A DNA stretch of 57,789 nt from positions 1 through 57,789 of the forward strand of contig JAFDVY010000007.1 in the NCBI GenBank assembly GCA_018268785.1, in the 5' to 3' direction. This document shows, in pieces, positions 5,291 through 52,652 of the stretch. The DNA is from Acidobacteriota bacterium. Its GTDB lineage: Bacteria > Acidobacteriota > Terriglobia > Acidiferrales > UBA7541. Each line of letters opens with the position of its first letter. Within the stretch, counting starts at the first letter, position 1. Below the pieces are notes generated by a model. It was not told where the DNA came from. It made no database searches and worked only from the letters and a program-made list of their open reading frames with translations. The position numbers were made by a program, and so were the translations under genes.

Positions 5291-6165
5291 GCGGGGAGAA
5301 GTTGAAACTGGGAATTCCGAAGGGGAGTCTGCAGGACGCGACGATTGATTTGTTTGCGCGGGCGGGTTGGAAAATCACGCTGGGATCGCGGAGTTATGTG
5401 CCGGCGATCGACGATGCGGAAATTGAATGTTTGATGGTACGCGCGCAGGAGATGGCGCGGTATGTGGAGACAGGCGCGCTGGATGCGGGAATTACCGGAC
5501 ACGATTGGGTGGTGGAGACAGGCGCAGACGTGGAAGAGCTGGCAGAACTTGTGTATGCGAAACAGCGGCTGGCGCGAGTGCGCTGGGTTTTGGCGGTACC
5601 GGAAGATTCGAAGATTCGCGATGCCCGGGATTTGGAAGGCAAAGTGATTGCGACAGAAGTGGTGCGGATCACGGAGAAATATCTGGAGAAATTTGGAGTG
5701 AAGGCGCGAGTGGAGTTTTCGTGGGGCGCTACGGAAGTGAAGGTGCCGCAACTGGCGGATGCGATTGTGGAAGTGACGGAAACGGGATCGTCATTGCGAG
5801 CGAACCGATTGCGAGTGCTGGATACGGTGCTGGAATCGGCGACGGTGTTCATCATGAACCGGAAAGCGGCGGCGGAGGCGGCGAAACGCGAGAAGGTGGA
5901 AAACCTGATCTTGATGCTGCAAGGGGCGATTGCGGCGGCGAGCAGAGTGGGATTGCTGTTGAATGTGCGCCGAGACGATTTGGAGACGGTACTGGGCGTG
6001 CTGCCAGCGTTGAAGAAGCCGACGATTTCCGCGTTGAGCGATCCAGACTGGGTGGCGATAAATACGATTATTGAAGAAGCGGTGGTACGGCAGATCTTGC
6101 CGAAGTTGAAAGCGGCGAAGGCGCAAGGGATTGTGGAATATCCGCTGAACAAGATCGTGCTCTGA
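5287..6165 (+). CDS. hisG: ATP phosphoribosyltransferase, long form
   Basis: Committed, feedback-controlled step of histidine synthesis: ATP plus PRPP to phosphoribosyl-ATP. Seen: [19 protein letters not shown] at the N-terminus, [13 protein letters not shown], and the phosphate-binding segment VSTRNRFA-like region replaced here by [16 protein letters not shown]. At 292 aa, with a C-terminal ACT-like part ending [13 protein letters not shown], it is the long, self-regulated form that does not need HisZ. Overlaps hisI by four bases and hisD by one. Confidence 0.96.
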
Positions 6166-7415
6166 TGAAAATTATTAAATTGACGGCGGCGAGCGAGAAG
6201 AAATTGTTCAAGGCGCGAAAGTTGCGCGACGCTGAGGCGGAACGCATTGCGACTGAGATTGTAGCGGACGTGCGGAAACGCGGGGACAAGGCGCTGTTTG
6301 CGTGGACCGAGAAGCTGGATGGGACCGATCTGAAGAAAGACGGCGTGTGGATTGGCGAGAAAGAAATTTCGGCGGCCGGACGTACGGCTGGCAAAGAGTT
6401 GACGAAGGCGGTTGAGCACGCGGTACGGAATGTTCGGCGCGTGGCAAAGCAGCAGTTACCGAAGGCTTGGAGTATCGAAACGGATGACGGAGTGCGGATT
6501 TCCCAGCGAGTGGAACCTATCGAGAGTATCGGCTGCTATATTCCGGGCGGAAGTTTTGCGCTGGTTTCGACGCTGATTATGACTGCGGTTCCGGCGCAGG
6601 TAGCGGGAGTGAAGGATATTGCAGTGGTTTGTCCGCGACCGAATGCGGCGCTGCTTGCGGCGGCGAACATTCTTGGCGTGAAAAAAATTGCGCGGATTGG
6701 CGGGGCGCAGGCGATCGGAGCGCTGGCGTATGGAACGAAGAATGTTCCGCGCGTGGAGAAGATTTTTGGGCCGGGGAACCAGTTTGTTACGGCGGCAAAA
6801 CAGATTGTGTCGAACGATTGCGCGATTGATTTGCCGGCAGGACCGACGGAAGCGATTGTTTACGCGAATCGCGGGAATGCGCGGTGGATTGCGGCAGATT
6901 TGCTGGCACAAGCGGAGCATGCGAAAGATGCGGGAAGTTTCTTTGTGACAACTTCTGGGAATCTGGCGCGGGAGGTGAAGCGCGAAGTTGGATGGTTGCT
7001 CGATGAACTGCCGGCGAGTCCAGCTCGTGTTTCCACGCTGACGAGTGGCGCGATTGTTGTGGCACCGAATGCAAGTGCAGCATTTGAGTTCATCAACCGG
7101 TTTGCGCCGGAACATTTGAGTTTGCCGGAGAACGCGAATGAACTACTACCGAGGGTTCGCGCGGCGGGGACTGTTTTTGCGGGGCCACTGGGCGCGCAAC
7201 CGCTGGGCGACTACATGAGCGGGAGCAATCACGTGTTACCGACGGGAGGATGGGCACGACGGCGCGGGGGCCTCTCGACAGGCGATTTTGTGAAATGCAT
7301 CAGCGTGCAGACGATAAGCGCAAGAGGATTTGCGAAGCTTGCAGACGACGTGGTGACGCTTGCGAAGGCGGAAGGGCTGCATGCGCATGCGAAAGCGATC
7401 GAGGTGCGGCGATGA
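6165..7415 (+). CDS. hisD: Histidinol dehydrogenase
   Basis: Last two steps of the pathway, L-histidinol to L-histidine with two NAD. Seen over 416 aa: ESIGCYIPGGSFALVSTLIM, GGAQAIGALAYGT, FGPGNQFVTAAKQ, DLPAGPTEAIVYA, FAPEHLSLPENA and the C-terminal GSNHVLPTGGWARRRGGLSTGDFVK, all conserved in the family and including the zinc-ligand Glu/His region. Starts on the last base of the hisG stop (TGATG) and overlaps hisC by ATGA. Confidence 0.96.
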   Translation: MKIIKLTAASEKKLFKARKLRDAEAERIATEIVADVRKRGDKALFAWTEKLDGTDLKKDGVWIGEKEISAAGRTAGKELTKAVEHAVRNVRRVAKQQLPKAWSIETDDGVRISQRVEPIESIGCYIPGGSFALVSTLIMTAVPAQVAGVKDIAVVCPRPNAALLAAANILGVKKIARIGGAQAIGALAYGTKNVPRVEKIFGPGNQFVTAAKQIVSNDCAIDLPAGPTEAIVYANRGNARWIAADLLAQAEHAKDAGSFFVTTSGNLAREVKREVGWLLDELPASPARVSTLTSGAIVVAPNASAAFEFINRFAPEHLSLPENANELLPRVRAAGTVFAGPLGAQPLGDYMSGSNHVLPTGGWARRRGGLSTGDFVKCISVQTISARGFAKLADDVVTLAKAEGLHAHAKAIEVRR

Positions 7416-23497: not shown

Positions 23498-23617
23498 GCT
23501 CGATTTTTCTTTCTGGAGGAATTGCTACGAAGGAAGGGACCGCGCAGAAACTCTGCGGAGAGAGCCGACCCTCGATAGCGCTCCATCCGTCAGCCTTTCG
23601 GCCAATTTGCAAATCGC

Positions 23618-23796
23618 TTCTTGGGAAGCAATCGGATGACAGTGAATGGGCTTTCGCCTCGTTCCCCAATCTCTGCCGTTTCAGCTACGGCCGAAATTTC
23701 GGCGGAGAAAACAACTTTGTCCCTTTCGCGCAGGCATCCGAAGCGAATCGGAACCGCTTGCCCGGCTACTTATGACCTCCGCACCTCTACCAAGAA
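23618..23796 (-). promoter_or_regulatory. Lysine riboswitch (L-box)
   Basis: The minus strand carries in order the conserved L-box segments AGAGGTGCGGAGG (ending at 23776), ATAAGTAGCCGGG, GCGAAAGGGACAA, CTCCGCCGAAATTT and CACTGTCAT (23645-23636). A closing P1 helix is TTCTTGG (23796-23790) with CCAAGAA (23624-23618). The 3' P1 strand can instead fold into GCTTC-CCAA-GAAGC, a plausible switch. It fills most of the 379-bp gap before dapE. Lysine riboswitches repress lysine biosynthesis genes when lysine is bound, which fits the dap operon. Confidence 0.82.
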
Positions 23797-23803
23797 CCCT
23801 TTA

Positions 23804-48920: not shown

Positions 48921-48974
48921 AACGCGGCAGGCGTATTCGGGATTCATACCGAACCGCCTGCCGCGTTGATTTTT
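48921..48974 (+). terminator. Strong rho-independent terminator
   Basis: Perfect 13-bp stem AACGCGGCAGGCG (48921-48933) / CGCCTGCCGCGTT (48955-48967), an inner TTCGG/CCGAA pairing, then GATTTTT. It ends the EAL/HDOD pair before the convergent TROVE gene. Confidence 0.88.
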
Positions 48975-49008
48975 GCGCGGAACTCGCGCGACTTCAATCG
49001 AACGTAAC

Positions 49009-49093
49009 CCGGGGCTTTCTCCGAGAGCTAGGCCACCCTTTTCGGTGAGCCATGCCGCTGGGATCGGAATCCCGGCGTTCCAAGAAGACCCGG
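49009..49093. other. Unassigned structured region between convergent genes
   Basis: CCGGG (49009-49013) can pair with CCCGG (49089-49093) enclosing two good hairpins: 49031-49051 (GGC/GCC plus CACC/GGTG) and 49054-49076 (GCC/GGC plus GGGAT/ATCCC with CGGA loop). Strand and role unknown. Confidence 0.4.
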
Positions 49094-49134
49094 AGAATTT
49101 TCAGCAACAGAAGAATCAAGTGAAACCACACTGG

Positions 49135-50490
49135 CTACTCTTCCTTTGCCTGCAGTGCGTCCGATTCGATCGCGGCGATGTAATCCACGATGCGATCGGA
49201 CCAGCCGTCAATGTGCGTCCAGCCGTTGCCGTAGCTGAGCCCGTGCTGATAAGGCGCAACGTTCACGACATAGGCCTTCGGCGTCCACGCGGCTGCGATT
49301 CCGTCGTGAGACTGTTCGTCCGTGATCACGATCACGCGGTCGAGCTTTTCCCATCCGCGCTTCTCTCGAAGCTCGATAAGCGCACGCTTCAGGTACGTCG
49401 AAGAGTGCGGCTGCGAACCGGTGATGGCGTCACGCAGGGCGAATCCACGGCGCGCGGGCAGCGTCACGCAATTTTCCGAAAAAGTGGCGATTTCAAATTC
49501 ATCCGCCACTTCGCGGAGAAGGATGGCGAGTCCCGCGGCTGCGTCGATGCGCGTGGTCTCGCTCTTGCGAGCAAGAGCCGCGTCCATCGATCCGGAAACG
49601 TCAATGAGCAGTCCCGTCGAGCCGGGAAGTTTCTCGAAACCGGCAATGCCCTTGAGCATGGCCTTCTCGATGGCTTCCTCGAGCTTGGGCGCATAGCGCG
49701 CCGCCGTCACAAAACGGAACGGAAGCGCGCGGGCAATTCCCTTTTCAAGGCGCGAGGCGATGAGCTTCGGCTCCACGCCCGATGCAAGCATCAGGCGGAG
49801 ATTGCGAAGCACAGCCATTCCGCCAAGCTTTCCTTCGCTGAGCAGGCGCTCCCAGGTCTCGCGCTTGTCCTTCCCTGCGGACAGAGCAACCTCCCAGGTA
49901 TCGGGAGATTCGAGCGTGTTCTCTGCGAGACGCTTCCAAAGAGCGGCCTGTTCGGCGTTGATGGGCTTGGCGTGGCTGAGAAAGAGCACGTCGCGAAGCT
50001 TTACGATTCCGTCGCGGTTATACTTCGCGAGCTGGTAGGCGTCAAACTTCGTGAACGCCTGCGCGAGCCCGCGCTTTACCCCGGCGGAAAGCGGCTGCTT
50101 GCGGGGAGTCCAGTAGAGCGCAACGAACTCGGAGAGTTCGTCGGCGCGCTGGATGACGGCCCCGAGCGTTTCGGCTACAAGGCGTCCCGCACCTTTGCGG
50201 CGGGCGAGCTCGCGGACAAGGAAGAGCGGCGCGTGGCGCAGCTGCATCTTGTCGCGTGCTTCGCGCGCGAGTGCGGCCACGTCCTCGGACTTGTTCTTCG
50301 TCACGAGATCGGCGATGCGCTCCGCGATCTTGCTTCCCTTCTCATAGAAGGTGTCTTCCCAGAGCAGGCAGGTCATCACCGTTCGCCGAAGTTCCAGCCG
50401 CGGATTGACCCTCTGCGCTACCGCTCCTTCATGAGTTGTTGCGCGAATTCCGCTCGGGAACAGGCGCTTCCATACATTGAGTTTTGCCAT
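49135..50490 (-). CDS. rsr: Ro60-like TROVE/VWA RNA-binding protein
   Basis: 451 aa. Residues 1 to about 280 are a TROVE domain, the HEAT-like ring that binds Y RNA and misfolded RNA ends (ELRRTVMTCLLWEDTFYEKG, HAPLFLVRELAR, LRDVLFLSHAKP, RLLSEGKLGGMAVLRNLRLML). Residues about 290-445 are a VWA domain with the metal site DVSGSMD (near 297) and VIVITDEQSHDG. Bacterial Rsr proteins use Y RNAs to gate access to exonucleases such as PNPase in stress RNA decay. GGAGGAAGGAGG lies just before the ATG. Five Y-like RNAs lie upstream on the same strand. Neither rtcB nor rtcA is in the window. Confidence 0.95.
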   Translation of the reverse strand: MAKLNVWKRLFPSGIRATTHEGAVAQRVNPRLELRRTVMTCLLWEDTFYEKGSKIAERIADLVTKNKSEDVAALAREARDKMQLRHAPLFLVRELARRKGAGRLVAETLGAVIQRADELSEFVALYWTPRKQPLSAGVKRGLAQAFTKFDAYQLAKYNRDGIVKLRDVLFLSHAKPINAEQAALWKRLAENTLESPDTWEVALSAGKDKRETWERLLSEGKLGGMAVLRNLRLMLASGVEPKLIASRLEKGIARALPFRFVTAARYAPKLEEAIEKAMLKGIAGFEKLPGSTGLLIDVSGSMDAALARKSETTRIDAAAGLAILLREVADEFEIATFSENCVTLPARRGFALRDAITGSQPHSSTYLKRALIELREKRGWEKLDRVIVITDEQSHDGIAAAWTPKAYVVNVAPYQHGLSYGNGWTHIDGWSDRIVDYIAAIESDALQAKEE

Positions 50491-50519
50491 CGTGCTACTC
50501 CTCCTTCCTCCGAGCGCTC

Positions 50520-50547
50520 TGCGCTCCGGAATCCATGCCGGAGCGCA
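50520..50547 (-). other. Perfect hairpin in the rsr leader
   Basis: Ten-bp inverted repeat TGCGCTCCGG (50520-50529) / CCGGAGCGCA (50538-50547) with an 8-nt loop, 30 bp before the rsr start. No U-tract follows on the minus strand; it could pause or protect the transcript between the two coding parts. Confidence 0.5.
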
Positions 50548-50559
50548 AAGCTCCGGTAG

Positions 50560-51009
50560 TTAGTCGAGAAACGCCAAATAGCGCATGGCCATTGATCGGT
50601 TCTCGGTATTCATCAAAACGCGGTGCCATCCATCCAGAACGATGGTTTTGTGGTCCGGGTGCCAGACTTCGCCCCGGACATAGGCCGCCGCGTCGCGTTG
50701 CATCATGCGAAAGTTGCCGCGTTTCCGTTCCTGTTCTGGCAGCGTGTTGAATTGCTTCGCTGTCAACCCAGTGGGATACGCCGCTGAGACATACACAGTC
50801 TCGCCGCCGCCCCGGTAGCATTCTTCCGCGATGTGCGGTTTCCCGCCGTTGCCACGGCTGAGAAACTCGTTTCGCAGAACGTGCATTGAGTTTGCGACTA
50901 CTTCAGGCGCGGGGAGAAAAAACCATTCTCCCTGCCGGATGTAGGCCGCATTGCGTCTCCGGAAACTTTCTTTCCGGTTCAGCCCAAGCGACGACTCACG
51001 CACTCTCAC
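50560..51009 (-). CDS. Hypothetical protein, C-terminal part (frameshifted with upstream ORF)
   Basis: 149 aa from a GTG at 51009. Seen: RRRNAAYIRQGEWFFLPAPE, NEFLSRGNGGKPHIAEECY, VYVSAAYPTGLTAKQF, and DHKTIVLDGWHRVLMNTENRS. Reading this frame upstream of the GTG gives ALKPEEVRVRESS without a stop through the end of the preceding ORF, so it looks like the second half of one protein that starts in another frame at 51398. An AGAGGAAG tract just before the GTG could also allow separate initiation. Located 69 bp upstream of rsr on the same strand. Function unknown; probably part of the TROVE/Y-RNA module. Confidence 0.75.
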   Translation of the reverse strand: MRVRESSLGLNRKESFRRRNAAYIRQGEWFFLPAPEVVANSMHVLRNEFLSRGNGGKPHIAEECYRGGGETVYVSAAYPTGLTAKQFNTLPEQERKRGNFRMMQRDAAAYVRGEVWHPDHKTIVLDGWHRVLMNTENRSMAMRYLAFLD

Positions 51010-51020
51010 TTCCTCTGGCT

Positions 51021-51398
51021 TTAAAGCGATCTTTGCTCCCGCAACGGGCTGACCGGTTCGCTTTCAGGAATCGCCGCTACAAACCAATGCCGCTCATCGT
51101 GGCCGCACAAGAACTTTTGTTTCGCCAGAAGTTGTCCCTGCTCGCCGAATTGACGGCTGAGCAAGAGCAAATGCTTTTCCCGAGGTTCAAGATGCTGAAC
51201 CAGAATCTCCTGCGGCTTGCCAAGAGCGGTCCGAATCTCGAAGAACTCTCCGAGCTTGTCGCGACGGATGTCGAGCACAATACTCGGCTGTTCCACGCTG
51301 GAATTTCTAAAACTCCAGCGTTGTACCACCGGCACGCCGTCAAGAAATTTGACTCGCGCACCAATTCGGGAAAAGTGACGTACTAGATCACTGCCCAC
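51021..51398 (-). CDS. Hypothetical protein, N-terminal part (frameshifted)
   Basis: 125 aa from a GTG at 51398 that follows AAAGGA at seven bases; the frame is open to 51539 but lacks coding character there. Seen: SDLVRHFSRIGARVKF, IVLDIRRDKLGEFFEI, LVQHLEPREKHLLLLSR and KFLCGHDERHWFVAAIPES. The last ten residues before the TAA look out of frame; a one-base shift near 51050 (CAGCCCGTTGCGGG) continues into the next ORF. Either a genuine frameshift mutation, a programmed -1 shift or a sequence error. Function unknown. Confidence 0.72.
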   Translation of the reverse strand: MGSDLVRHFSRIGARVKFLDGVPVVQRWSFRNSSVEQPSIVLDIRRDKLGEFFEIRTALGKPQEILVQHLEPREKHLLLLSRQFGEQGQLLAKQKFLCGHDERHWFVAAIPESEPVSPLREQRSL

Positions 51399-51439
51399 TG
51401 CTTTTTCCTTTCTAAGGCCGCAAGAGCGGCCGGAATGTG

Positions 51440-51517
51440 TTAAGGCTCCAACCTCAATCGAGGAGCCGCGAAATTGCTTTCTACCCACGAAGTGCAAAAC
51501 TTCTTGTGCTCGTTCAT
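51440..51517 (-). CDS. Possible 25-aa small ORF
   Basis: ATG at 51517 preceded by AAAGGAG with six-base spacing; 25 codons (MNEHKKFCTSWVESN and on) ending TAA at 51440. It lies between the last Y-like RNA and the frameshifted gene. GGCCGC-TCTT-GCGGCC forms a perfect hairpin just after it (51415-51430). Could be a leader peptide or chance. Confidence 0.3.
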   Translation of the reverse strand: MNEHKKFCTSWVESNFAAPRLRLEP

Positions 51518-51545
51518 GCTGCTCCTTTCCTACCTGCAAATTTGC

Positions 51546-51680
51546 TGGACGGGAACAAACGGCCAGGGAACGTAGGCGCTCTACCCACTGAGCTATTGGC
51601 CCTTTTCAGGAACCAAGTGAGAATCGAACTCACGTCCTCCCGCTCCTGAGGCGAAGTAACCCTGTCCTACACCACGTCCA
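51546..51680 (-). ncRNA. Y-like RNA 1 with tRNA-like module (YrlA type)
   Basis: 135 nt. Outer stem TGGACG/CGTCCA; TGGTGTA; helix GGACAGGG (51667-51660) with CCCTGGCC (51568-51561), one mismatch; TTACTTCG; 3' linker GTTTGTTCC. The module holds a T-arm GTGAG-TTCGATT-CTCAC (51633-51617), a 7-bp acceptor-like stem TTGGTTC/GGGCCAA capped by CTGAAAA, then TA and a D-arm GCTC-AGTGGGTA-GAGC (51593-51578). T-arm precedes D-arm, so this is a circularly permuted tRNA shape opened at the anticodon stem. Last and most complete of the five RNAs. Confidence 0.85.
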
Positions 51681-51797
51681 ACTCCTTACTCGGCACACAT
51701 CTCTGCCGGGGAAACTCTTGCGAGGCAGGTGACTTCATCGCCGGCCGCCCCAGCGCGAGCCGCCATCCAGTTGCGATTCGCGCCGGACAAATTCGAT

Positions 51798-51881
51798 CCG
51801 GGAGGAAAATCGAATCGAGCAGCGGAGCAACAGCCCCGCGTCGTTTCACAGACGAAGTAACTCGGCTCTGCACCATCCCGG
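51798..51881 (-). ncRNA. Y-like RNA 2, hairpin module
   Basis: 84 nt. Outer stem CCGGGA/TCCCGG; TGGTGCA; helix GAGCCGAG with CTCGATTC (7 of 8 pair, one wobble); TTACTTCG; 3' linker GATTTTCC. In place of the tRNA-like part is a simple hairpin GCGGGGC-TGTT-GCTCCGC. Begins 8 nt after RNA 3. The following 117 nt to RNA 1 contain no complete unit. Confidence 0.75.
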
Positions 51882-51889
51882 AATATTTC

Positions 51890-52061
51890 TCCAGCGGGAA
51901 CGAACGGTTCGCGTAAGAGTGCTTTGAGCTATCGCCTTTGCAGAAAAATCGCCGGTCTAAAGACCGGCCACTACAAAGGCGAGCGAGAATCGAACTCGCA
52001 TGCCTCCCGGCTTTTCACCGGTTCGCTCTCCCGAAGTAACGCGCGCCTGTACCACGCTGGA
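51890..52061 (-). ncRNA. Y-like RNA 3, tRNA-like module interrupted by a REP-like repeat
   Basis: 172 nt. Outer stem TCCAGCG/CGCTGGA; TGGTACA; helix GGCGCGCG with CGCGAACC (6 of 8); TTACTTCG; linker GTTCGTTCC. T-arm GCGAG-TTCGATT-CTCGC (51999-51983) and a perfect 9-bp acceptor-like stem TCGCCTTTG (51982-51974) / CAAAGGCGA (51940-51932). The acceptor loop contains a whole TGTAG palindrome (51975-51951). After TAGCTC the D-arm partner GAGC is missing, so the D-arm has decayed. May be inactive as a tRNA mimic while keeping the Ro-binding stem. Confidence 0.75.
51951..51975 (-). repeat. TGTAG-type palindromic repeat, copy 7 (inside Y-like RNA 3)
   Basis: TGTAGTGGCCGGTCTTTAGA then CCGGC, perfect GCCGGTCT/AGACCGGC hairpin. 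It occupies the loop between the two acceptor-stem strands of Y-like RNA 3. Confidence 0.75.
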
Positions 52062-52069
52062 ACTTTTTT

Positions 52070-52201
52070 GTGGCGGGAATCGGCGGCACAAGTAATTTTT
52101 TGACCCGATGCTCTGTCCAATAAGCTACGGCGGGTTTCGCCGGCAGGAATCGAACCTGCTGCCTTCGGGTTCCGATGTAACTCATGCCTTCACCACGCCA
52201 C
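52070..52201 (-). ncRNA. Y-like RNA 4 with tRNA-like module (YrlA type)
   Basis: 132 nt. Outer stem GTGGCG/CGCCAC; TGGTGAA; helix GGCATGAG (52188-52181) with CTTGTGCC, all eight positions paired or wobble; TTACATCG; linker GCCGATTCC. Module: anticodon-stem equivalent ACCCGA/TCGGGT, variable loop AGGCA, T-arm GCAGG-TTCGATT-CCTGC (52159-52143), acceptor CGGCG-AAACC-CGCCG, TA, D-arm GCTT-ATTGGACA-GAGC (52125-52110). The 5' part TGGTGAAGGCATGAGTTAC strongly recalls the 5' strand of animal Y RNAs (UGGUCCGAAGGUAGUGAGUUAU). Separated from RNA 3 by 8 nt. Confidence 0.87.
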
Positions 52202-52228
52202 AAATTTGTATTCTTGCCTCCTCGAGAG

Positions 52229-52254
52229 TGCCGGGCTGAAACCACGGCTCTACA
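52229..52254 (-). repeat. TGTAG-type palindromic repeat, copy 8
   Basis: Minus-strand TGTAGAGCCGTGGTTTCAGC then CCGGCA, in the 137-nt gap between Y-like RNAs 5 and 4. Confidence 0.6.
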
Positions 52255-52338
52255 TTTCGGAATAGACCGCCTGCGCACACCCGTAGTACTACTCCGTAAT
52301 CTCGACTTCTTTTCGCCAATGGCTGCCGCAAGAAAATT

Positions 52339-52431
52339 CCGGGAGGAACTAGCGTTCACGGCTCTCGGGGCTCCCGCCCCGAGCCCTCACGGGTCAAGTG
52401 GAAGAAGTATCCGTGAACTACGCCATCCCGG
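52339..52431 (-). ncRNA. Y-like RNA 5, hairpin module
   Basis: 93 nt, first of the array. Outer stem CCGGGA/TCCCGG (the same as RNA 2); TGGCGTA; helix GTTCACGG with CCGTGAAC, eight perfect pairs; ATACTTCT; linker GCTAGTTCC. The module ends in a strong hairpin CTCGGGGC-GGGA-GCCCCGAG and lacks T- and D-arms. Same stem plan as the other four, so it should bind the TROVE protein but not act as a tRNA mimic. Confidence 0.75.
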
Positions 52432-52492
52432 GATGAAATCCCGCGACAGAACACGTTGAAAAGAAACGATTTATACGGAGTTTCTTACGATC

Positions 52493-52580
52493 GCGTGAGC
52501 CAGCAAAGTGCGCGACCGACTGGTCCGTGTACCGCTTCGGTTGTCTTATTGTCGTCGCTCTGCATCTTTGCCTTTCACGC
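52493..52580 (-). ncRNA. Long structured leader element
   Basis: An 88-nt imperfect hairpin on the minus strand: GCGTGA/TCACGC, GCAAAG/CTTTGC, TGC/GCA, GCGAC/GTCGC and GAC/GTC stack with small internal loops. It lies between the candidate promoter and Y-like RNA 5. It lacks UGGYRNA and UUACUUCG, so I do not count it as a Y RNA. Otherwise the 352 bp from 52432 to 52783 hold no gene. Confidence 0.45.
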
Positions 52581-52623
52581 TCAGTGAGGATCCCGCAAAA
52601 CGGAAAACAACTGAGGTAACGCC

Positions 52624-52652
52624 AAAGTAAATGGAAACGAAAAAACTGTCAA
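52624..52652 (-). promoter_or_regulatory. Candidate promoter of the Y RNA array
   Basis: Minus-strand TTGACA (52652-52647), 17-bp spacer, TACTTT (52629-52624), the same design as the his promoter (TTGACA-17-TACTCT). Expected start near 52617, ahead of the structured leader and the five RNAs. Confidence 0.55.

What the first reader, a model, noticed from the sequence alone, without database searches (positions are those of the whole stretch)
49135..52652. Ro60/TROVE locus with an array of five Y-like RNAs
The sequence directly shows five minus-strand units (52431, 52201, 52061, 51881, 51680 as 5' ends) that share one plan: 6-bp outer stem, UGGYRNA, 8-nt helix strand, UUACUUCG (or close), variable module, returning 8-nt strand, 8-9 nt ending UUCC, closing stem. 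Stem sequences differ between units while pairing is kept, i.e. compensatory variation within one locus. Downstream on the same strand is a full-length TROVE/VWA protein. Established: TROVE proteins (Ro60, Rsr) bind Y RNAs, often encoded nearby. Most described bacterial loci have one or two Y RNAs; a five-member family with two module types is unusual.
Basis: partly seen in the sequence, partly recalled or inferred. Interest (0 to 1): 0.93.

Follow-up and report, generated by a model that had tools for sequence, protein, structure and literature searches.

The report
Y RNA array of tRNA mimics
Beside a bacterial relative of the human Ro60 autoantigen gene lies a row of five predicted small RNAs that share one handle but carry different ends, most of them tRNA-like and one predicted to fold as a whole tRNA with its arms in a different order, anticodon arm included; they would likely let the protein team up with different tRNA-recognising partners.

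Summary
Five minus-strand units (52431-52339, 52203-52068, 52062-51889, 51882-51797, 51682-51544) share one two-helix handle, and a TROVE gene lies downstream (49135-50490). Such arrays precede TROVE genes across Acidobacteriota: 211 units in 64 loci by descriptor, none on the opposite strand. 46 of 64 loci have three or more units, so five is not unusual here. U1, U2, U4 and U5 have counterparts in the same order in related genomes; U3 comes and goes. Most modules resemble pieces of tRNA. U2 and, more divergently, U3 are of the known YrlA kind: circularly permuted T, acceptor and D arms. U5 also carries an anticodon-type arm (5-bp stem, 7-nt loop CUCAGGA) and a 5-nt variable loop, so it is predicted to be a complete permuted tRNA with the handle inserted in or beside its anticodon stem. 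U4 carries an anticodon-type hairpin alone. Over 211 units such 7-nt loops occur 46 times against 2.4 in shuffles, with U33 in 42 and R37 in 44. Six of 11 phage loci read carry similar arrays. Single-sequence folding does not favour the arm. I found no anticodon arm described in Y RNAs, but the key papers were not held. Function is untested.

The parts
52624..52652 (-). sigma-70-like promoter of the array: TTGACA, 17 nt, TACTTT
   Evidence: read; an equivalent element aligns in L002, L004, L008 and L029, not in L003; activity not tested
52485..52565 (-). possible 26-codon leader ORF in the conserved leader
   Evidence: same length in 5 of 6 gp2 loci, shifted frame in L004; coding not shown
52339..52431 (-). 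Y RNA U1, hairpin module; its counterparts in relatives carry a T-arm-like hairpin (GGGTTCGAATCC in L002), not seen here
   Evidence: R1 37.0 bits
52068..52203 (-). Y RNA U2, YrlA-like permuted tRNA module (T, capped acceptor, D), no anticodon loop
   Evidence: Rfam YrlA 37.3 bits, below cut-off; R1 72.5 bits; strict descriptor
51889..52062 (-). Y RNA U3, divergent YrlA-like module with extended acceptor arm; not in L002, L004 or L029
   Evidence: R1 58.1 bits; did not pass the strict descriptor
51797..51882 (-). Y RNA U4: handle, anticodon-type hairpin and a G+C-rich hairpin
   Evidence: R1 33.4 bits
51841..51855 (-). U4 anticodon-type hairpin TCGT-CTGTGAA-ACGA
   Evidence: pair probability only about 0.1 by single-sequence folding
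51544..51682 (-). Y RNA U5: handle plus predicted complete circularly permuted four-arm tRNA module
   Evidence: R1 121.4 bits (training member)
51639..51655 (-). U5 anticodon-type arm TTCGC-CTCAGGA-GCGGG
51617..51633 (-). U5 T arm GTGAG-TTCGATT-CTCAC, after 5-nt variable loop AGGAC
51596..51616 (-). U5 acceptor stem (7 bp) closed by the loop CTGAAAA instead of open ends
51578..51595 (-). U5 TA plus D arm GCTC-AGTGGGTA-GAGC
50560..51539 (-). two ORFs (172 aa and 149 aa) where relatives L002, L003, L008 and L029 have one intact protein; no Pfam or NCBIfam family for that protein
49135..50490 (-). TROVE protein, Ro60-type, 451 aa, with a weakly matching VWA part

Best explanation
This is an array of five predicted Y RNA genes upstream of a Ro60-type gene, whose RNAs likely all bind that protein through one shared stem and would each present it with a different module, most of them tRNA-like. 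Shown by sequence comparison: the shared two-helix handle with compensatory changes; the permuted T-acceptor-D module in U2 and U5 and, more divergent, in U3; the 7-nt anticodon-type loop in U4 and U5; and the recurrence of these module types in relatives and in phages. Inferred: the Rsr-like ring binds the outer stem (with its bulged U) as in known Y RNAs, the modules recruit tRNA-recognising proteins, and so one ring serves several partners. The T/acceptor/D modules would tether PNPase or tRNA-modifying enzymes as reported for YrlA. The anticodon-arm modules would engage proteins that read the anticodon loop, such as anticodon nucleases (as decoy or sensor) or anticodon-loop modification enzymes.
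For: Five units found, with background controls. In 55 units of the first scan, four of five outer-stem positions show three or more standard pair types and 274 of 275 cells pair, though the descriptor asks for pairing. In 21 aligned U5-type units RNAalifold, given no structure, returns handle, anticodon hairpin, T arm, capped acceptor and D arm; 25 of 38 pairs have changes on both sides. 97.7% of cells pair against 79.2% shuffled; covariation 0.520 against 0.169 shuffled and at most 0.111 when slid. Anchored anticodon-type hairpins with 7-nt loops: 46 of 211 units against 2.4 in shuffles, other loop lengths 1 to 7 each against about 2.3; Y32 45, U33 42, R37 44, A/C38 46 of 46. In the 19 strict four-arm units the variable loop is 5 nt in 17 and 4 nt in 2. 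In short units the hairpin has P>=0.5 in 5 of the 7 in which it was located, of 8 folded. A model built without phage sequence scores its best six phage units at 105-113 bits, and its part 29-66 weakly hits ordinary tRNA genes. In the own genome its 4 matches at E<=1e-3 all lie in the array (strict filters). PNPase and RtcB are encoded elsewhere in the genome. Four units keep their order in related genomes.
Against: No expression or binding data. Single-sequence folding gives the anticodon hairpin P>=0.5 in only 2 of 21 U5-type units, and the four-arm fold lies 3.2-16.3 kcal/mol above the MFE; for the window's U5 it is 9.2, with P 0.01 for the anticodon stem, 0.17 for the T arm and 0.02 for the D arm. 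Host tRNAs reach P>=0.5 in 27 of 45, so the energy model is a weak judge, but the Y hairpin does worse. For U4 P is about 0.1. RNAalifold does not draw the hairpin in the 41 short units. In the U5 type the anticodon stem covaries at one pair only (2 cells). ARAGORN of 19 re-permuted modules tRNA, but also 14 of 19 with anticodon and variable region shuffled and 4 of 4 units without a recognised arm, so that call is weak support. Loops match real host tRNA loops only slightly beyond the loop consensus (15 of 46 against 9.5 permuted, P 0.02; distinct loops 5 of 29 against 4.2, P 0.41). 165 of 211 units do not show the anchored hairpin. The protein fails NCBIfam's Rsr equivalog model (14 of 900 bits).
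Confidence: 0.6

Rival explanations
1. Ordinary YrlA-type Y RNAs that tether an Rsr-like ring to PNPase for structured-RNA decay (RYPER-like); the anticodon-like hairpin is only a spacer and the extra members are redundant copies.
For: U2 and U5 score on Rfam YrlA, below cut-off; PNPase is present in the genome; PNPase tethering is the established mechanism (passages of PMC8394870 and PMC4726728); single-sequence folding does not favour the anticodon hairpin in the U5 type.
Against: A spacer does not explain 7-nt loops 19 times over the shuffled number with U33, R37 and A/C38, nor the one-to-one order of different modules in related genomes.
Confidence: 0.27
2. Degraded or rearranged tRNA genes, or tRNA-derived repeats, that happen to lie beside the TROVE gene.
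For: ARAGORN calls single units tRNA in L003, L007 and L029; two phage records annotate units as tRNA.
Against: The arms are in permuted order: 0 of 19 modules are called tRNA unpermuted. Every unit has the handle; the descriptor finds none on opposite strands; covariation speaks against decay.
Confidence: 0.03
3. A structured 5' leader that regulates the downstream genes in cis (for example by binding the TROVE protein) rather than free small RNAs.
For: One promoter-like element precedes the array in 5 of 6 gp2 loci and there is a conserved leader with a possible short ORF; units and genes share the strand.
Against: The units are self-contained, and units lie both before and after a separate small ORF in L036 and L040, which suits processed or separate RNAs better. 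The two ideas are not exclusive.
Confidence: 0.1

Closest known systems
YrlA / bacterial Y RNA (Rfam RF02553; structure 6CU1)
   Same: Stem from paired ends; circularly permuted tRNA-like T, acceptor and D arms; gene beside a TROVE gene (PMC8394870 and PMC11472068, passages).
   Different: No unit in the window or in 12 other loci reaches the Rfam cut-off (best 50.0 of 69 in the 7 loci also searched below cut-off). U5 keeps an anticodon-type arm and U4 has one alone; the Rfam consensus shows none. 3 to 8 units in 46 of 64 loci.
Rsr-YrlBA-RtcBA RNA repair operon of Salmonella (PMC7790460, passages)
   Same: TROVE protein with Y RNAs; link to tRNA damage; RtcA lies next to the array in L034 and RtcB next to TROVE in L041.
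   Different: None of the four ORFs scanned at the window's locus is RtcA or RtcB and the genome's RtcB match is on another contig. RtcA and RtcR were not searched genome-wide.
Phage TROVE loci (Caulobacter, Brevundimonas, Xanthomonas phages)
   Same: Same handle, 4-7 units each by descriptor at cut-off 13.5 in 6 loci (31 units, some near-identical between phages); 4 of 31 pass the strict four-arm rule with an anticodon arm.
   Different: Phage-borne; by eye some modules resemble class II tRNAs with a long variable arm.
Vertebrate Y RNAs (hY1-hY5)
   Same: Lower stem with a bulged base bound by Ro60 (PMC4726728, passages).
   Different: The same review says bacterial Y RNAs are not homologous with the vertebrate ones.

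Membership tests
Bacterial Y RNA (YrlA, RF02553) | Rfam gathering score 69 bits | tested here: not met
   37.3 and 30.0 bits for U2 and U5; no gathering hit to YrlA in 12 related loci
Bacterial Y RNA (YrlA, RF02553) | ends paired in a stem, permuted T-acceptor-D module | tested here: met
   U2 and U5 by strict descriptor; U3 by model R1 and by eye; U1 and U4 lack the module
Bacterial Y RNA (YrlA, RF02553) | gene near a Ro60/TROVE gene | tested here: met
Bacterial Y RNA (YrlA, RF02553) | bound by Ro60 and to PNPase | not testable with these tools
   needs biochemistry
TROVE family (PF05731) | Pfam cut-off 23 bits | tested here: met
   58.3 bits
Rsr equivalog (NF041674) | NCBIfam cut-off 900 bits | tested here: not met
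   14 bits; a TROVE protein outside that equivalog
tRNA gene | cloverleaf in normal order | tested here: not met
   no tRNA called in the array; 0 of 19 unpermuted modules called
tRNA-like anticodon arm | 7-nt loop with Y32, U33, R37 | tested here: met
   46 of 211 units against 2.4 in shuffles; Y32 45, U33 42, R37 44 of 46
tRNA-like anticodon arm | 5-bp stem stable by energy model | tested here: inconclusive
   P>=0.5 in 2 of 21 U5-type units and 5 of 7 short units, against 27 of 45 host tRNAs

The most novel reading that the evidence does not exclude
Ro60 in these bacteria and phages is a platform for a panel of tRNA-part baits: anticodon arm alone, T arm alone, three-arm permuted tRNA and whole permuted tRNA. 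The anticodon-arm members present varied anticodon loops, often UGU at 33-35, as decoys or sensors for anticodon nucleases or as substrates of anticodon-loop enzymes, making the array a surveillance and protection system for tRNA.
Probability: 0.2. Interest if true: 0.9.

Novelty: new variant of a known kind. Interest (0 to 1): 0.72.

Why it matters
Bacterial Y RNAs are described, in what I could read, as mimicking three tRNA arms. Here a class keeps what looks like the fourth, the anticodon arm, and another class consists of little else. That would give a concrete, testable reason why Ro60 systems sit beside tRNA repair genes, why phages carry them, and why one Ro60 protein needs several Y RNAs. 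It also explains some tRNA annotations in phage genomes.

Tried and rejected
Tandem-repeat origin: only one short repeat, inside the TROVE gene. A sixth unit downstream of TROVE (48930-49160): tRNA-like by eye, but no model hit and not seen in relatives; dropped. Conserved leader ORF: same length in 5 of 6 loci but frame lost in L004; left open. ARAGORN on re-permuted modules as proof of the anticodon arm: rejected as a strong test after its controls. Helix between the strands around the module as a mark of the YrlA type: not discriminating, since a liberal search finds 3-6 bp in 20 of 20 units without the arm and 3-5 bp in 18 of 19 with it. The idea that each anticodon loop copies one particular host tRNA: only weak support. 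UGU (33-35) as a queuosine or colicin E5 signal: enriched in short units (12 of 17 against 5 of 45 host tRNAs), but the units are related by descent and the link to those enzymes is recalled, not tested. The 277-aa neighbour as a dedicated partner: 6847 homologues of unknown function; not pursued.

Sampling: of 69 genomes with TROVE in the second family search 54 were read upstream (48 earlier). L005 (short contig), L010/L033 (decayed TROVE) and L041 were scanned with no unit and are not in the 64-locus set; the three zero loci inside the set are two contig ends (L083, L087) and L099. L009 was left out of the set because it appears to be the same contig as L115. L006 and L007 in the set are from records titled Clostridiales and Pelotomaculum. 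In the ARAGORN control 4 units without the arm could be re-permuted, 16 were too short. Of 88 phage records with TROVE 11 were read; crAss-like (3), Rhizobium (1) and Microcystis (1) phages gave no descriptor unit. Model R1 was run on 10 of the 11 (not L127) and finds 4 units in the Rhizobium and 1 in the Microcystis phage (the latter downstream of TROVE), weak hits in one crAss-like phage and none in the other two. In one search 31 of 55 cores were aligned. A3 holds 41 of 43 short units. In one search 8 of 41 short units were folded, one of which did not match the hairpin pattern. Module classes rest on simple sequence rules. The 21 units of A2 were picked because they looked of the U5 type.
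Full report
WHAT IS THERE. The window is contig C294 of an acidobacterial genome (4.24 Mb, 94% complete; the nearest named relatives are records titled Acidobacteria, several of them gp2). On the minus strand five units run from 52431 to 51544, then two ORFs, then a 451-aa TROVE protein whose VWA part matches only below Pfam's cut-offs. Each unit has an outer stem, TGGYRNA, an inner helix of 8-9 bp, UUACUUC (or close), a module, the inner return strand, 8-9 nt ending in CC, and the closing stem. All five were found by a descriptor and by a covariance model.

CHANCE. The descriptor gave 211 units on the gene strand of 64 TROVE loci, none on the other strand (358,590 bases) and 2 in 577,890 simulated bases. 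In the first set of 55 units four of five outer-stem positions use three or more standard pair types while 274 of 275 cells pair. The descriptor asks for pairing, so the fair controls are the opposite strand and the simulation.

HOW COMMON. Units per locus: 0 in 3, 1 in 8, 2 in 7, 3 in 12, 4 in 21, 5 in 11, 6 in 1 and 8 in 1 of 64 loci. TROVE relatives are patchy: 9 of 95 genomes of the order and 9 of 396 drawn from the phylum, the own genome counted in both, and 69 of 398 in one other family. In five same-genus loci compared with the window, units U1, U2, U4 and U5 align one to one and in order; U3 is present in the window and L003, degenerate in L008, and absent in L002, L004 and L029. In L008 other units are worn too: by descriptor only U2 and U4 pass, while model R1 also finds U3 and U5 there but not U1. 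Different modules are thus kept at fixed places, which argues for different jobs.

MODULES AND TRNA PARTS. By simple rules the 211 units fall into 43 short ones, 60 with T loop and D arm, 57 with a T loop only and 51 others. By a strict rule 39 units (37 loci) have a 5-bp T arm, a capped acceptor stem and a D arm in the permuted order T-acceptor-D. This permutation is known for YrlA (PMC11472068, passages). New to me is the fourth arm: 19 of these 39 also have, directly before the T arm, a 5-bp stem (4 or 5 pairs) with a 7-nt loop and a variable loop of 5 (17 of 19) or 4 nt; U33 in 18, R37 in 19 and A/C38 in 18 of 19, residues the rule did not ask for. The window's U5 is one of them, with loop CTCAGGA. 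The predicted tRNA is then complete and the handle is inserted in or beside its anticodon stem, between about positions 26 and 29; the strand after the D arm begins ACCT in 11 of 19, which could pair with the GGG of the anticodon stem, so the exact joint is open. In YrlA-like units such as U2 the handle takes the place of the anticodon loop. In the window U1 has no tRNA-like part left and U4 only the hairpin.

TESTS OF THE ANTICODON ARM. Searching all hairpins just after the motif, 64 of 211 units have a 7-nt loop against 10.6 in shuffles; the other lengths from 3 to 10 occur 7 to 16 times against 9.8 to 14.2. Anchored at the motif with a 4-bp stem: 46 units against 2.4; 17 of 43 short, 22 of 60 tRNA-type, 5 of 51 others (U4 among them) and 2 of 57 T-only units; Y32 45, U33 42, R37 44 and A/C38 46 of 46; 34 of 61 loci with units have at least one with U33. 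The stem varies in step in short units (TCGA/TCGA, TCGT/ACGA, TCCT/AGGA, TCAA/TTGA). The alignment of 21 U5-type units gives the whole structure by RNAalifold with strong covariation overall, though in the anticodon stem only one pair covaries. Loops equal to a loop of one of the 45 tRNAs found in this genome: 15 of 46, against 0.12 for random 7-mers and 9.5 when columns are permuted. Against: single-sequence energies prefer other folds in most U5-type units, the window's included, the hairpin is not drawn by RNAalifold in the 41 short units, and ARAGORN accepts shuffled arms too.

PHAGES. 88 phage records hold a TROVE relative. Of 11 read, six (three Brevundimonas, two Caulobacter, one Xanthomonas) carry 4-7 units each upstream of TROVE at cut-off 13.5, none on the other strand; 4 of these 31 units pass the strict four-arm rule. 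Model R1, made without them, scores its best six phage units at 105-113 bits. Two phage units sit under annotated tRNA genes: tRNA-Ser in Kikimora and tRNA-Gln in CcrColossus.

MECHANISM. Reported for relatives (passages of PMC8394870, PMC4726728 and PMC7790460): Rsr binds the Y stem, Y RNA tethers PNPase, YrlA is modified by tRNA enzymes, and the Salmonella operon is induced when tRNA fragments accumulate; there YrlA fragments were not seen, and Hughes et al. offer as one possibility that YrlA inhibits the anticodon nuclease. My inference: one ring, several adaptors, most showing another part of a tRNA. The anticodon-arm units make the decoy or sensor idea directly testable. Neighbours fit a tRNA-repair setting in some relatives: RtcA beside the array in L034 and RtcB beside TROVE in L041. 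In the window's genome RtcB and PNPase are on other contigs.

NOVELTY. Y RNAs beside TROVE genes are a known kind; from memory, the abstract of Chen et al. 2014 already reports likely Y RNAs in more than 250 bacterial and phage species, at least one per species tRNA-like. PMC8394870 describes the domain as D, T and acceptor arms (passage). Searches for Y RNA with anticodon and Ro60 (17 papers), permuted tRNA with Y RNA (none), TROVE, anticodon nuclease, phage and Ro60, any three (9 papers), and tRNA mimic, anticodon nuclease and decoy, any two (25 papers, 15 listed) showed no paper on an anticodon arm in Y RNAs, judged by titles, abstract starts and the passages I read. The primary papers were not held, so the claim of newness is limited to this open library.

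Noticed in passing
L041 (G209:C7:674500-684500): TROVE and RtcB genes lie inside an array of 25 tRNA genes, all on one strand; R1 finds one Y RNA at 6056-6193, 88 bits, just upstream of TROVE. A possible tRNA replacement and repair island.
   Followed up: partly
window 50560-51539 (-): A protein that is intact in L003 (279 aa), L008 (315), L029 (277) and L002 (331) is split here into two ORFs by a frame change (real or assembly error). The L029 protein has 6847 homologues and no Pfam or NCBIfam family.
   Followed up: partly
window 52485-52565 (-): Possible 26-codon leader ORF before the array, same length in 5 of 6 gp2 loci.
   Followed up: partly
L036 6294-6629; similar ORFs in L035 and L037-L040: A ~110-aa cysteine-containing protein (CRTC...IMTGFRESE) lies beside or between Y units in another acidobacterial family; the L036 copy has no family match over cut-off.
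   Followed up: no
L034 5509-6534 (-): RtcA (PF01137, E 2.6e-73) directly upstream of the Y array.
   Followed up: no
L121 2766-2901 and L124 2122-2290: Y RNA units annotated in part as tRNA-Ser and tRNA-Gln in phage records; ARAGORN makes the same kind of call in L003, L007 and L029.
   Followed up: yes
L121 6341-6686: A permuted tmRNA (RF04321, 57.7 bits) in Brevundimonas phage Kikimora.
   Followed up: no
L010 / G015:C63: Decayed TROVE gene (fragments, a stop) with one remaining Y RNA hit at 54.3 bits.
   Followed up: no
L009 / L115: The record titled Rhodanobacteraceae appears to be the same contig as G809:C22 (same length and units), which the genome set places in an acidobacterial family; likely a mislabel.
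   Followed up: no
window 23568-23797 (-): Lysine riboswitch (RF00168, 63.2 bits).
   Followed up: no
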